Shown here in pieces: positions 1 to 49,304 of a stretch of 64,000 bases of DNA. Location: NCBI RefSeq assembly GCF_037893015.1, contig NC_133660.1, forward strand, positions 162,496,937 to 162,560,936. Direction: 5' to 3'. Source of the DNA: Macrotis lagotis. Taxonomy: Eukaryota > Chordata > Mammalia > Peramelemorphia > Peramelidae. Made by a program: the position numbers and the translations under genes. The notes under the pieces were generated by a model. The model had not been told where the DNA came from. It saw only the letters and a list, made by a program, of their open reading frames with translations, and did no database searches. Each line of letters begins with the position of its first letter. The stretch's first letter is position 1.

Positions 1-125
1 TGCAGCATCTAAAAGATCAGCTGGAACAGCGAACTCGGATGATAGAGGCAAATATTCACCGACAACAAGAAGAACTCAGAAAAATTCAAGAACAACTACA
101 AATGGTCCATGGTCAAGGTTTACAA
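1..125 (+). CDS. CLOCK: CLOCK, internal coding exon (5-prime end outside window): coiled-coil segment
   Basis: CLOCK is the bHLH-PAS partner of BMAL1 that drives E-box circadian transcription in the nucleus. The first two bases finish an ATG codon; 41 codons then read from [20 protein letters not shown] to the end MVHGQGLQ, nearly identical to the human protein as I know it. The Q/E/R-rich heptad-like run fits the coiled coil which, in mouse, is encoded by the exon lost in the Clock-delta19 mutant and binds CIPC. The exon ends in phase 0 at a donor GTAAGT (126-131). The bHLH and PAS domains lie upstream of the window. Recognition is from memory of the family; confidence is high because the next exons continue the protein in order. 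Confidence 0.95.
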
Positions 126-2130: not shown

Positions 2131-2340
2131 ATGTTTTTACAGCAGTCATCCCCTGGATTGAATTTTGGTTCTGTTCAACTTTCTTCTGGAAATTCATCAA
2201 ATATGCAACAACTTACACCTATAAACATGCAAGGTCAGGTTGTTCAAACTAATCAGATTCAAGGTGGAATAAATACTGGACATGTTGGTTCTTCTCAGCA
2301 CTTGATGCAACAACAGCCTTTACAAAGTCCAGCAACTCAG
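2131..2340 (+). CDS. CLOCK: CLOCK coding exon
   Basis: Seventy codons in phase 0, from [20 protein letters not shown] to LQSPATQ, matching the serine/glutamine-rich stretch after the coiled coil of vertebrate CLOCK with scattered substitutions. The acceptor is AAAG just before 2131 and the donor is GTAAAG at 2341. An open frame runs upstream to 1966 and downstream to 2382, but the splice sites and the homology fix the exon borders. Confidence 0.95.
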
Positions 2341-2918: not shown

Positions 2919-3124
2919 CAAACTCAACCAAACATTATCAGTGGCCACAATCAACAAACCTCTCTTTCCAATCAGACTCAAAGCCCGCTAACAGCTCCAC
3001 TGTACAACACTATGGTAATTTCTCAACCAACAACAGGAAATATGGTCCAGATTCCATCTAGCATGCCACAAAACAGTAACCAGAATGCTGCAGGAACTAC
3101 TTTTACCCAGGACAGACAGATAAG
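2919..3124 (+). CDS. CLOCK: CLOCK coding exon
   Basis: 206 bases. It begins [20 protein letters not shown] and passes through [10 protein letters not shown] to FTQDRQIR. The acceptor is CCTAG before 2919; the donor GTAACT starts at 3125. The last arginine codon is split: AG here plus A at the start of the next exon. This is transactivation-region sequence, Q/S/T-rich and with no catalytic residues; in CLOCK the C-terminal half is where activity is modulated. Confidence 0.95.

Positions 3125-5421: not shown

Positions 5422-5423
<2 letters not shown>

Positions 5424-5473
<50 letters not shown>
5424..5473. repeat. (ATT)n microsatellite
   Basis: About 16 units, grown from the 3-prime tail of the MIR just before it. 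Confidence 0.97.
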
Positions 5474-6060: not shown

Positions 6061-6220
6061 ATTTTCACAAGGTCAGCAACTGGTGACAAAATTAGTCACT
6101 GCTCCTGTAGCCTGTGGAGCAGTTATGGTGCCCAGTACCATGTTTATGGGCCAAGTGGTAACGGCTTATCCCACTTTTGCTGCGCAACAGCAACAGCCAC
6201 AGACTTTGTCAATAGCACAA

Positions 6221-6284
<64 letters not shown>

Positions 6285-6397
6285 AACAGCAGCAGCAACA
6301 ACAACAACAACAACAGAGCCAGCAGGAACAGCAGCTAACTACTCTTCAGCAATCATCTCAGGCTCAGCTAACTCAGCCACCACAACAGTTCTTACAG
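6061..6397 (+). CDS. CLOCK: CLOCK coding exon with long polyglutamine tract
   Basis: The first base completes the split arginine; 112 codons follow, beginning [20 protein letters not shown] and continuing [20 protein letters not shown], a block strongly conserved in vertebrate CLOCK. Then come 33 consecutive glutamine codons (6218-6316), [12 protein letters not shown] and [11 protein letters not shown]. The human protein has only about six glutamines here. The acceptor is TTTTGCAG; the donor is a weak GTCTTT (6398-6403), and read-through would add only five residues before a stop at 6413. PolyQ runs also occur in bird CLOCK, where their length varies. Exon order and phase agree with the next exon at 17,443. 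Confidence 0.95.
6218..6316 (+). repeat. CLOCK: Polyglutamine-coding (CAG/CAA)33 tract
   Basis: 33 codons, CAG and CAA only, with blocks of up to nine CAG then alternating CAA runs. The mixed codons reduce slippage compared with a pure CAG tract. In the other frames the tract gives Ala/Thr/Ser runs, which are shadows. Confidence 0.97.
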
Positions 6398-11145: not shown

Positions 11146-12042
11146 TCTAAACTGGTTTTTAACATGTTATTTTCTTCAGTATGTTTCTGTATTTCTTTCA
11201 GCAAGTTGCTGTCTTGGTTCTCATGATTTATCTGCATCTCATTTCTCTTCCCACTTTTTCCTCTACTTCCTTTACTTGTTTTTCAAAGTCTTTTTTTGAG
11301 CTCTTCTGTCGCCTGAGCCTATTTCCTATTTCTCTTGGAGGCTTTGGACACAGAAGTTTTGACTTTGTCATTTTCTGAGTTTGTATTTTGATTTTCCATG
11401 GGACCAAAGTAATTTTCTGAGGTCAGATTATTCTTTTCTTGTTTGCTTCATTTCCTCAACCCATGACTGATTTACCGCACTTTCAAGGATTTGGGGTTTT
11501 TTTTGGGACACCCCACAGGGATCTTAATTCCTCCAGGGTCTTATGAGAGGCTCTGACTGCTCTCTTGCCTGTTCTCTGTTATGTGGATGACCACAAGCCC
11601 TCCCCTCTGCTCTGGAGATTTGAGGAGGGTCCTGCTCCACACTGGTAGTATGGGGGCTAAGACTGCAACTTGAATCTGAGGGTGGGCAAACAACAGAGTC
11701 CTGCCCCAAGGATAGCAGAGAGACCTCTGCAGTCTCCCCTGACCCCCTTACCATCTAGGCTGGCTCCTGTGGAAGTGCTGGGTGGCTCCACAAGTTCCCA
11801 CCACAGGGCTGCTCCAAAACCTGTGCTGACACTCTCTCTAGTGCCACAGAGTTCTCTCACAGCCTTTTTTTTTTAATGAGAAGTATATTTTATTTTTGTA
11901 TAAATGATTTTTTATACATTACTAAAATATTCTTGCTTGAGTAAACATAATACCCCCTCCCTCCCCCCAAATATAGACCCTCATGAGGAATAAAGGAGAA
12001 TAAAAAGCTAAAATTAAAATTACAAATAATAATAATAACAAT

Positions 12043-12190
12043 AGGGGCAGCTAGGTGGTGCAGTGAATGGAGCACTGGCCCTGGAGTCAGGAGTACCCAA
12101 GCCCAAATCCAGCCCCAGACACCCAACAATCACCCAGCTGTGTGGCCATGGGCAAGCCACCCCAACCCCATTACCCTGAAAAAACCAAAA
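12043..12190 (+). repeat. CORE-SINE with T-to-C excess (1 of 3)
   Basis: Recognisable SINE, but the usual CTTAATAATTACCTAGCTG reads CCCAACAATCACCCAGCTG, with about eleven T-to-C differences by eye from neighbouring copies. Confidence 0.88.
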
Positions 12191-12193
12191 TAA

Positions 12194-12194
<1 letters not shown>

Positions 12195-12228
<34 letters not shown>
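12195..12228. repeat. (AAT)n microsatellite
   Basis: Tail expansion of the SINE before it. Confidence 0.95.
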
Positions 12229-12382
12229 GGGTGGCCAGGTGGTGTAGCGGACAGAGCACTGGCCCTAGAGCCAGGAGCACCTGGGTTCAAATCCAACCCC
12301 AGACACCCAACAATCACCCAGCTGTACAGCACTGGGAAAGCCACCTAATCCCATTTGCCCTGCAACCCCCCCACTCCAAAAT
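12229..12382 (+). repeat. CORE-SINE with T-to-C excess (2 of 3)
   Basis: About fourteen T-to-C differences by eye, including the same CCCAACAATCACCCAGCTG block as the copy at 12,043. Confidence 0.88.
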
Positions 12383-12383
12383 A

Positions 12384-12430
<47 letters not shown>
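12383..12430. repeat. (AAT)n microsatellite
   Basis: About 16 units at the SINE tail. Confidence 0.96.
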
Positions 12431-17442: not shown

Positions 17443-17619
17443 ACTTCCAGGCTGCTTCATGGAAATCCTTCAACTCAGCTCATCCTCTCTGCTGCTTTTC
17501 CACTCCAACAGGGCCCTCTGACCCAGGCCCATCACCAGCAGCACCAGACTCAGCAACAGCAGCTTCCCCGGCATAGAACCGATGGTTTGTCTGATCCTTC
17601 CAAAGTCCAGCCTCAATAG
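17443..17619 (+). CDS. CLOCK: CLOCK last coding exon
   Basis: 58 codons plus stop TAG (17,617-17,619). Begins [20 protein letters not shown] and ends [16 protein letters not shown], the hallmark C-terminus of vertebrate CLOCK (human ends ...[12 protein letters not shown]). A second Q/H-rich stretch, [14 protein letters not shown], precedes it. The middle reads GPLTQA where human has STFPQS. Phase 0 joins it to the exon ending at 6397 across an 11-kb intron. Confidence 0.97.
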
Positions 17620-32254: not shown

Positions 32255-32887
32255 AGTAGTGAAAAGACATTATATAAATAAACAACTTCTACACAAACAT
32301 CTTGATTCACTTTTTTATTAATTTTAAGTCATTTTGTTTTGTTTGTTACTGTAAATACCGAGCTTAAGTGTAAAAGTTTGTTAAAAGCATTTTTTTCAGG
32401 TTTAATTTAGAAAGCCTTTCTATAAGTTAGGGCAACAGAGATTTCTGAAAGGTCAGATGTTCCCAAGCACATAGAACAATATGAAATAAAATATCAAACT
32501 GAGAGATGTTTGGTGACTAAGGTGAAGAGAAATGACCAGGGAAATAAAGCGAGCCTGCTTTTCTGAAGTTTCCACACATTTTCTAATGGGATAATAAACT
32601 AAAAAGGCTCTTAAATCACAGGGTAAGAAATTGGCTTCATAAACCAAGGATAATTTTGAGACAGAAAGTGATTAAATTAGAGAATCCTCCAAAGAGGAAA
32701 ACTATAATAGCATTTTAGAAAAACCGGCAATATAATCAGTTAAAAAGACAACAAATGTAGTCATTCCTAAAAACACTTTAATGAATAATGTGACTGGAGG
32801 AACTAAGGAGTATAGTGGGCTATTAAACCTAAAAGGAGATATCATATAAGCCAAACAAAAGCAATAGGTACTTCAAAGATCACTGAC

Positions 32888-33070
32888 CTCTCTTGCTGCC
32901 AAAACAATTGTAGTTAGTTGAGAACGATCACCCCATTCTGCTAAGAATGTTAAAGTAAGAGCTTGAACAAAAATAGGAGAAATAAAATGCAGCCATTTTT
33001 TCTGAGGTATGGTTGTGCTTGTACCAGTCTCAATATCTCCTGGACCATTTAGAAGTTTGGTTCTTTGAAG
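32888..33070 (-). CDS. TMEM165: TMEM165 exon 4
   Basis: 61 codons, phase 0 at both ends: LQRTKLLNGPGDIETGTSTT, then IPQKKWLHFISPIFVQALTL and TFLAEWGDRSQLTTIVLAAR. It holds the second family signature, EWGDRS (residues 249-254 of the assembled protein), whose acidic residues are thought to bind the transported cation. The first residue is Leu where human has Phe. Minus-strand acceptor TTTTTTAAG, donor GTCAGT. Confidence 0.97.
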
Positions 33071-33901
33071 CTTAAAAAAGGAAAAAAAAATATCATGATA
33101 TAGAGACTCAAAAAATTCCAAAAGTTAAGTAGCAAATTATTTAAAAAGCCATTATGAAGAAATATTTCTATTTACTGTCAGAAATGCCACAATCTTTCTT
33201 TAGCATTAAAATTATCTGCATTTTTTTTAAAGCTAGTCATGCTAAGGAGTATTTGTGTTCCACAAGACATTAAAAATAATATTACATCTTAACAAATGGC
33301 CAGTGAATTAAACAATCAACATATTTTTAAAAATTTAAATTAGAGCAGGAAGGAAAGTATTCAAATTTTAAGGAAAATGATAAAGTGAAATAAGTTATAT
33401 AAGTTAAAGTCATTCAATTTATAACTACAATTCTAATCACTTTGCTTTTTTTACAAATTTGCTGGGTACCTGCAATTTCAAAGACACTATGCTTGATACT
33501 ACAGATAAAAATGAGGATAAGAAAGGCTTCCATTCTAGAAACCTGCAATCTAAGGATTATAATTTTATAATTTTGTTTGAATATCAACAAAGCACTTCTC
33601 ACCTCACACAGAAGTTCCTTTGGGTTCATACATTCTGAACTAGAAACCCATAGGTTTTTAAAACACATTCTGACCCAGCATCAACCCTTATTACAGTTCT
33701 TGAAACAGTAACCAGGAAAAGAAAAAGCTTTTTCTATGTAAATGTATATGTGTATGTATATAACACACACACACACACATATATCTGTGTATTTACAAGT
33801 ACATGTGTGTACAGTGCTAAAATCTGGATCACAGCTAAGACTCAGGATTGTGTTTTTAGTTTAGCATCTTACTGACCAAAATATTAAATACTGTGACTTA
33901 C
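33071..33901. other. TMEM165 intron 3
   Basis: AT-rich; a short (CA)n lies near 33,763-33,780. No large repeat was recognised. Confidence 0.6.
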
Positions 33902-38256: not shown

Positions 38257-38284
38257 TAATAAACTTGAATTCCTAAGTACTTAC

Positions 38285-38510
38285 CAGATAAACAAGTCAT
38301 TAGGCCCAAGGCCAGCATAGCACCTGCTAGCACAGTCAATCGGTTATATCGCATTGCCATGATGGCAGCTATGAAGAATGTCTTATCTCCTAATTCAGAA
38401 ACAATGATAACTGAGATGGCAGCCACAAATGCATGGATAAATCCCAAATTAGTCTGGCCAGCAGGATCTTCATTATTAATATGAATTGGGGAAGCTGGTA
38501 TAGGTCCTTT
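38285..38510 (-). CDS. TMEM165: TMEM165 exon 2
   Basis: 75 codons plus one base: KGPIPASPIHINNEDPAGQT, NLGFIHAFVAAISVIIVSEL, GDKTFFIAAIMAMRYNRLTV, then LAGAMLALGLMTCLS. It holds the first family signature, ELGDKT (residues 109-114), and the tyrosine sorting motif YNRL (125-128). The 30 residues after NLGF are almost unchanged from human. Acceptor CTGTTACAG, donor GTAAGT. Confidence 0.98.
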
Positions 38511-38949
38511 CTGTAACAGAAAAACAAAATTTGATTTTTTTCCAAACCCAAATACAACAAATGCAGAAAAAACCTTCAATGAAATAAAACTTTCACCTAT
38601 ATTGGAAAAATCCCACAAAAAACACCCAAAGTGATTTGAAATGGGAAATATAAGTTTTCCTTAAAAATACTGGAGTGCCCATCTGATACATACAGAGTAG
38701 ATGAAAGTAATCTGAAAGAAGAAAGCATTGGTGTCAGAGGAATGGGGAAAGGTCTCCTGCAGGAAGCAGAATTTGAGGTGAGGCTTGAAGGAAGCCAGGA
38801 AAATTTTGCAAATGTTGTACTTGGTTTTTGTGAACTGTTTTATCCTCTATTTTCCCCTCTATTTTGAGAAATGGTGAAGGATTCCTATTATGAGGATATG
38901 GAGGCTACATAAAAAAAAAATTATCAAAAACAAGTTTATAAAGAAAAGT

Positions 38950-45045: not shown

Positions 45046-45430
45046 AAATCATCTAGGTTTACTTAACTCATTTTGAGGATGGAGAAATCAGACTAAAGAG
45101 ATGAAATGACTTATTCAATGTCACACAGATAAAAAGCAGCAGAGCTCAGTTGGCCTCTTCTCCCTGCTCCCTCCTCCTCAATGAGTCAGACTTCTCCATC
45201 CCAACCCAACCAGAAATAAAGCTGGACTTTCATTAAGCTTTTCATTAAACTAGCTAGACATTCAAAGGCATTCACTGGGAAAATATGGGGAAAGGAAACA
45301 ATTCTATATAAATTACAAAGTAACAGACTTACCCAATGTCTGGTTACAAATTGTTCTAACACTAAACCTTGACTATTCCATCATACAAGTTAGAATTTCC
45401 ACTCAAGTCCTCCTCCAATGCCTAAACCTA

Positions 45431-45506
45431 GGCCAAAATTGACCCTGGTTTCTTGAAAGCGATGTCCAGGCCAAAATTGACCCTGGTTTCTTGAAAGCGA
45501 TGTCCA
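45431..45506. repeat. Perfect 38-bp tandem duplication
   Basis: The 38 bases at 45,431-45,468, starting GGCCAAAATTGACCCTGG, repeat exactly at 45,469-45,506. Confidence 0.97.
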
Positions 45507-48600: not shown

Positions 48601-49094
48601 CAGAAAAGGGCATTTGCATATGCCCCAGTCAACTTGCCTGAAGCTCCCAAACACAAAAAGAGGCAAAAAGCTCACAATCCGAAGAAAGATGGGAAGATGT
48701 GGGAAAGGGGGCACCGTGGGCGCACGAGGCGGAAGGCTTAGGTCGGGCACAAGCGCCCGCTTCGGGGCCGGCGGCGGCGCGGGGCTCCCGGGCGCGGCGC
48801 CCCCTTGGCAGGCGCGTCAGGCCGCGGTCACAATGGGCCCCGGGGCGCGCGGGGCCCCGGCCCCCCGGGCCCGGCTTCTGCCCCCCGGCCCCCCACGCCG
48901 CGGTCGTGCCGCCCTCTTCGCCGCCTCCCCTTGCCCCCGCCGAGCCGCCCGCGAGCCCGGCCCCCGCCGCCCCGCCGGCCCGGCCCGGCGGCCCGCGGGG
49001 GTCCGGGGGGCTCCCGGGCGCCCCCGCCGCTAGGCCGCAGCGGCGCGCCTCCACGCTCCCCGGCCGGGCGCCGGCGCGGCCCCGCAGCCCTCAC

Positions 49095-49304
49095 CTCGGC
49101 GCGGGCCGCCTCCAGCTCCTGAGCCTCCGCCGGCTGCGGCTGGAGCCGCTGCGGGGCCGCCGGTTCCTGGTCTCGGCCGCCGACCTCTTCCTCGGGCGCG
49201 GCCCCCAGCCCGAGCGGGAGCAGCAGCAGCAGCAGCAGCAGCGGCAGCGGCGGCAGCGGCAGCGGCGGCGGCGGCGAGGCTCGTCGGCCCCCCAGCGCCG
49301 CCAT
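49095..49304 (-). CDS. TMEM165: TMEM165 exon 1: start codon, signal peptide
   Basis: TMEM165 is the Golgi cation/proton exchanger of the UPF0016/GDT1 family, needed for Mn2+ supply to glycosyltransferases; human loss causes CDG-IIk. This exon gives residues 1-70: MAALGGRRAS, a hydrophobic signal sequence with eight leucines in a row (about 11-34), then the Glu/Gln/Pro-rich lumenal N-terminus ending EAARAE. ATG at 49,304-49,302, donor GTGAGG. The six exons together (978 bases) encode 325 residues against 324 in human, with both E-x-G-D-(K/R)-(S/T) signatures intact, so the gene looks functional. Confidence 0.93.

What the first reader, a model, noticed from the sequence alone, without database searches (positions are those of the whole stretch)
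6218..6316. 33-glutamine run in CLOCK
The sequence shows 33 consecutive Gln codons in the CLOCK transactivation region. Human CLOCK has about six here, and the bird CLOCK polyQ alleles I know of are shorter than this. PolyQ length in CLOCK-type proteins is linked in other animals to activation strength and timing traits. The CAG/CAA mixture suggests a settled expansion, but the nine-CAG block could still vary in length.
Basis: partly seen in the sequence, partly recalled or inferred. Interest (0 to 1): 0.75.

Follow-up and report, generated by a model that had tools for sequence, protein, structure and literature searches.

The report
Very long glutamine run in CLOCK
The body-clock gene CLOCK of this marsupial (most likely the greater bilby) really carries an unbroken run of 33 glutamines, long for a mammal but of a well-known variable kind and shorter than a published lizard example, so it is a lead for population study rather than a surprise.

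Summary
Window 6218-6316 (+) holds 33 uninterrupted Gln codons (16 CAG, 17 CAA) in a coding exon of CLOCK that splices in frame. The longest pure CAG block is ten, not nine. The genome fits the greater bilby (Macrotis lagotis) assembly in size, scaffold number and chromosome 1 length.

The run lies in CLOCK's known length-variable polyQ tract. It exceeds the longest CLOCK repeat in a published survey of 68 mammals (26 units) and the bird ranges seen (4-15). It is not a vertebrate record: green anole CLOCK has a published tract of 47.

Most likely it is an extreme-length allele grown by replication slippage in a Gln-rich activation region, with a mild, untested effect. Published links between CLOCK polyQ length and timing are inconsistent. 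No other marsupial CLOCK was compared, so whether the length belongs to the individual, the species or marsupials is open. Verdict: real, ordinary in kind, extreme for mammals.

The parts
6218..6316 (+). 33 consecutive Gln codons, (CAA)2(CAG)10(CAA)4(CAG)2(CAA)5(CAG)3(CAA)6(CAG)1
6061..6397 (+). CLOCK coding exon that holds the polyQ tract (337 bp, AG/GT borders, begins in the third codon position)
6224..6253 (+). longest pure CAG block, ten codons, the stretch most likely to vary in length
   Evidence: variability is inference
1..125 (+). 3' part of the CLOCK exon encoding the coiled coil (begins upstream of the window); GT donor follows
   Evidence: only PDB match 5vji, CLOCK
2131..2340 (+). 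CLOCK coding exon ([15 protein letters not shown]...)
2919..3124 (+). CLOCK coding exon ([15 protein letters not shown]...QDRQI)
17443..17619 (+). last CLOCK coding exon with TAG stop; its own short Gln run (TQQQQL) is not expanded

Best explanation
This is the ordinary length-variable polyglutamine tract of the circadian transcription factor CLOCK, here in an unusually long form (33 Gln). Shown: the tract is in the assembly, in frame, in an exon with proper splice borders, in a CLOCK gene whose part inside the window reads open to the stop. Inferred: it grew by replication slippage of CAG and CAA blocks (the two codons are clustered in blocks), it lengthens the disordered Gln-rich part of the C-terminal activation region, and it changes co-activator recruitment and activation of E-box genes by BMAL1-CLOCK only in degree. 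The codon interruptions probably keep most of the tract stable, with the ten-CAG block the likeliest to vary. Constraint on length may be loose in a burrowing, nocturnal, rain- and food-driven breeder, but that is a guess.
For: Tract and codon order. Codon clustering: 8 blocks from 16 CAG and 17 CAA, P(8 or fewer blocks) 0.00063 in 100,000 permutations. In-frame exon chain, 4 of 4 acceptors AG and 4 of 4 donors GT inside the window. CLOCK identity: 17 forward-strand tblastn rows in order along C3 with a recalled human CLOCK query (rows of the other strand were dropped uncounted), Pfam HLH and PAS_11/PAS_3, best PDB hits named CLOCK for the PAS-B peptide (8osj, 1.5e-90) and only PDB hit named CLOCK for the coiled coil (5vji, 1.2e-23). 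One genomic match at E up to 0.001 to the first 55 of the exon's 112 residues. The only gap in this exon against the recalled human protein is 27 residues in the tract. [quoted passage not shown] Fly Clock's validated C-terminal activation domain contains a polyQ repeat (passages). Bilby biology: burrowing, nocturnal, breeding driven by food and rainfall (passages).
Against: No functional or population data; one assembly, one sequence. Two short stretches of fetched CLOCK DNA upstream of the window read N, and a 37-residue PAS-A piece gave no Pfam match, so full integrity of the gene was not shown. Distinction from the paralogue NPAS2 rests on identity to a recalled human CLOCK and on PDB names; no NPAS2 chain appears among the 60 of 62 PDB rows shown. 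Whether selection or drift set the length cannot be told.
Confidence: 0.85

Rival explanations
1. The long tract is typical of a wider marsupial or bandicoot-bilby lineage and is old, not a bilby novelty.
For: CAA blocks between CAG blocks suggest some age; long CLOCK tracts occur in unrelated vertebrates.
Against: None direct: no other marsupial CLOCK sequence was compared. The sequence collections offered are of prokaryotes, viruses, phages, plasmids and metagenomes, and I did not search them for CLOCK. Paper searches (12 of 30 hits listed) showed no title or abstract start on marsupial CLOCK polyQ; most listed papers were not opened.
Confidence: 0.4
2. It is a rare or captive-line allele of the sequenced female, while the usual bilby tract is shorter.
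For: CLOCK polyQ is often polymorphic within species; the reference is one female.
Against: Only ten CAG codons are pure, so large jumps are less likely (inference); the assembly holds no second copy to compare.
Confidence: 0.25
3. The length is an adaptive setting of the clock, for example for non-photoperiodic breeding or burrow life.
For: Prentice et al. suggest that long repeats may arise where photoperiod matters less; bilbies burrow, are nocturnal and breed with rain and food; storm-petrels show a latitudinal cline in CLOCK polyQ.
Against: Prentice et al. call the idea largely unsupported; trait associations do not replicate across bird species.
Confidence: 0.1
4. The length is an assembly or polishing error.
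For: The published assembly was polished with short reads, which can disturb repeats.
Against: It rests on PacBio HiFi long reads, which span 99 bp easily; the tract is a multiple of three and the frame stays open.
Confidence: 0.03

Closest known systems
CLOCK polyQ tract of birds and mammals (ClkpolyQ)
   Same: Same gene and same tract in a C-terminal exon; CAG/CAA coded; length variable between and often within species.
   Different: 33 Gln here against 4-15 in the bird passages seen and at most 26 units in a survey of 68 mammals. That survey counts repeat units with some impurity, so it is not strictly like for like.
Green anole (Anolis carolinensis) CLOCK polyQ
   Same: Extreme uninterrupted Gln tract in the same protein.
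   Different: 47 Gln in the anole, 33 here; unrelated lineage; the section read says that any effect on function remains to be investigated.
Drosophila Clock Gln-rich activation domain
   Same: C-terminal activation domain containing a polyQ repeat, validated by luciferase assay (passages).
   Different: Not aligned here; distant orthologue.
Disease-type CAG expansions (huntingtin kind)
   Same: Long polyQ coded partly by CAG.
   Different: 33 is under the threshold of about 40 discussed; only ten consecutive CAG.

Membership tests
CLOCK (bHLH-PAS circadian activator) | bHLH domain | tested here: met
   Pfam HLH 9.9e-12; C3:162466112-162466255
CLOCK (bHLH-PAS circadian activator) | PAS-B domain closest to CLOCK | tested here: met
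   PAS_11 5.2e-24; best PDB hits 8osj and 4f3l, named CLOCK; no NPAS2 chain among the 60 of 62 rows shown, so CLOCK against NPAS2 was not tested by this call
CLOCK (bHLH-PAS circadian activator) | PAS-A domain complete | tested here: inconclusive
   Exons of this part found by tblastn, but two short stretches read N and a 37-residue piece had no Pfam match
CLOCK (bHLH-PAS circadian activator) | CLOCK coiled coil (mouse exon 19, label recalled) | tested here: met
   only PDB match 5vji, named CLOCK, 1.2e-23
CLOCK (bHLH-PAS circadian activator) | C-terminal exon with polyQ tract and conserved terminal exon to the stop | tested here: met
CLOCK (bHLH-PAS circadian activator) | pairs with BMAL1 and activates E-box genes | not testable with these tools
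   needs an experiment
ClkpolyQ length polymorphism | length differs between individuals of the species | not testable with these tools
   one assembly, one copy
Disease-type polyQ expansion | at least about 40 Gln and long pure CAG | tested here: not met
   33 Gln, longest pure CAG ten; threshold

The most novel reading that the evidence does not exclude
CLOCK polyQ length is released or tuned upward in mammals whose breeding ignores day length, and the bilby's 33-Gln tract, beside naked mole rat and hamster, is a marsupial case of it with a measurable effect on clock amplitude.
Probability: 0.08. Interest if true: 0.6.

Novelty: new member of a known kind. Interest (0 to 1): 0.25.

Why it matters
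CLOCK polyQ is a widely used candidate marker for timing traits in birds and fish, with mixed results. A mammal with a tract more than twice the longest bird allele seen here (15) extends the natural range and gives a simple test of whether length changes CLOCK activity. For a managed threatened species the tract would also be a cheap coding marker. It does not reveal a new kind of system.

Tried and rejected
Assembly error was considered and rated unlikely (HiFi assembly, open frame). A second or processed copy was not found: one genomic match at E up to 0.001 to the first 55 residues of the exon, and the gene has introns. The PDB search with the polyQ exon itself gave low-complexity Gln-rich matches (14 distinct sequences up to E = 1, none named CLOCK), so identity rests on other exons. 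RNA folding of the tract gave -10.2 kcal/mol, z -2.84, 3 of 200 shuffles at least as stable, with one hairpin in the ten-CAG block, a second short one, and a wholly unpaired centroid; I draw nothing from it. Literature: the main text of the 68-mammal survey had no hit for marsupial, opossum, Sarcophilus, Monodelphis or Spalax; its supplement was not readable here. The search with 'Tasmanian devil' gave one paper, on histones. A bovine polyQ survey has no occurrence of 'clock' as a whole word. Of what searches listed I used the fly activation-domain paper, the Junco paper and the Notch repeat paper. Avivi 2001 and O'Malley 2008 are not held and were not read. No structure was predicted: a lone polyQ model would be uninformative.

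Full report
What is there. At 6218-6316 on the + strand there are exactly 33 consecutive Gln codons, CAA2 CAG10 CAA4 CAG2 CAA5 CAG3 CAA6 CAG1. The run is far beyond chance for this sequence: in 200 order-1 Markov resamplings of the window (+ strand) the longest CAG/CAA run was 4 codons. How many such runs the whole genome holds was not determined.

Which gene. The exon (6061-6397) reads [53 protein letters not shown]33[27 protein letters not shown]. With a human CLOCK sequence recalled from memory as query, tblastn (E up to 0.1) on the fetched region gave 17 forward-strand rows in collinear order, from the start-codon exon about 33 kb upstream of the window to the last coding exon, whose TAG stop is at 17617-17619; rows on the other strand were dropped uncounted. 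Independent of that recalled query's name, the PAS-B peptide has CLOCK as its best solved structure (8osj, 1.5e-90), the coiled-coil exon has CLOCK as its only one (5vji, 1.2e-23), and Pfam finds HLH and PAS_11. A 37-residue PAS-A piece had no Pfam match, and no NPAS2 chain is among the 60 of 62 PDB rows shown, so the PDB does not by itself separate CLOCK from NPAS2. The five coding exons that reach into the window have AG at 4 of 4 acceptors and GT at 4 of 4 donors and join in one frame ending in a single stop. The first 55 residues of the polyQ exon have one match at E up to 0.001 in the 3.66 Gb genome. Two short upstream stretches read N, so those residues were not checked. On the other strand, ORFs at 38259-38660 and 32876-33124 match GDT1, as expected of TMEM165, which I recall as CLOCK's neighbour.

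Which animal. The genome has 3,655,600,598 bases in 607 contigs, with contig C1 of 934,355,481 bases. The published greater bilby assembly has 3.66 Gb, 609 scaffolds and a chromosome 1 of 934,426,298 bases (passages). I take the species to be Macrotis lagotis, in a slightly different version of that assembly; this is an inference.

How the tract is built. CAG and CAA are clustered in 8 blocks; random order of the same 33 codons gives 8 or fewer blocks in 0.063% of 100,000 permutations. This fits growth by slippage or small duplications of short blocks. The longest pure block is 10 of 33 codons. The expansion is confined to this tract: the preceding QQQQ is unchanged and the Gln run near the stop is one residue shorter than in the recalled human protein.

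How it compares. Bird CLOCK tracts in the passages seen: 5-9 in five Tachycineta species, 6-13 and 9-15 in storm-petrels, an allele table spanning Q8-Q15 in stonechats, and 6-13 in migrants and 4-14 in non-migrants for region R1 in a multi-species bird survey (its abstract, cut in the listing, speaks of 70; the R1 regressions have 23 degrees of freedom). Mammals: in a survey of 68 species the longest CLOCK repeat was 26 units (Chinese hamster), and the naked mole rat had 22 (passages); two flying squirrel species have nine CLOCK alleles between them, six in both (section read). That survey counts repeat units with some impurity, so 26 is not strictly comparable with 33 Gln. Reptiles: green anole CLOCK has an uninterrupted tract of 47 Gln, with the remark that other vertebrates mostly have fewer than ten (section read). 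So the bilby tract is the longest mammalian one that I met, and not the longest vertebrate one. Paper searches (12 of 30 hits listed) listed no paper evidently on marsupial CLOCK polyQ; of their hits I looked into three by passages. They cover only open-licence PMC papers. The bilby genome paper's main text has no occurrence of 'clock' or 'circadian'.

How it most likely works. In flies the C-terminal activation domain of Clock contains a polyQ repeat and drives a luciferase reporter (passages). Passages in the bird papers cite mouse and fly truncations, the blind mole rat and an amphibian as evidence that the region sets activation strength (the cited originals were not read). Prentice et al. 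cite a mouse study as changing the polyQ repeat itself; as I recall, the mouse mutant concerned skips another exon, so I give that no weight. By inference the 33-Gln tract enlarges a disordered Gln-rich activation surface and shifts co-activator binding in degree. At 33 Gln it stays under the roughly 40-Gln threshold discussed for polyQ proteins (passages). Claims about timing should be modest: length-trait links did not appear in Tachycineta and are population-specific in stonechats; storm-petrels show a latitudinal cline but no difference in mean length between seasonal populations. The bilby is burrowing, nocturnal and breeds with food and rain (passages), which fits the suggestion of relaxed constraint where photoperiod matters little, an idea that its authors call largely unsupported (section read).

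Verdict. It is an extreme member of a well-known variable tract. What would raise its interest is comparative and population data, not available here.

Noticed in passing
32876-33124 and 38259-38660 (-): ORFs matching Pfam GDT1, presumably exons of TMEM165 lying tail to tail with CLOCK (gene name and neighbourhood recalled).
   Followed up: partly
45430-45506: A perfect 38-bp tandem duplication, two identical copies head to tail.
   Followed up: no
12025-12415: About two copies of a 184-bp unit (80% matches) with AAT microsatellites at 12189-12228 and 12384-12430, looking like a doubled SINE with AAT tails; similar repeat-like ORFs appear at several places in the first 12 kb.
   Followed up: no
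48855-49276: Tandem repeats with GC-rich and AGC/GCG units, including seven CAR codons at 49221-49241, perhaps a CpG island and first exon of the minus-strand gene.
   Followed up: no
5423-5473: A perfect (TTA)17 microsatellite in the intron about 0.6 kb before the polyQ exon, a possible linked marker.
   Followed up: no
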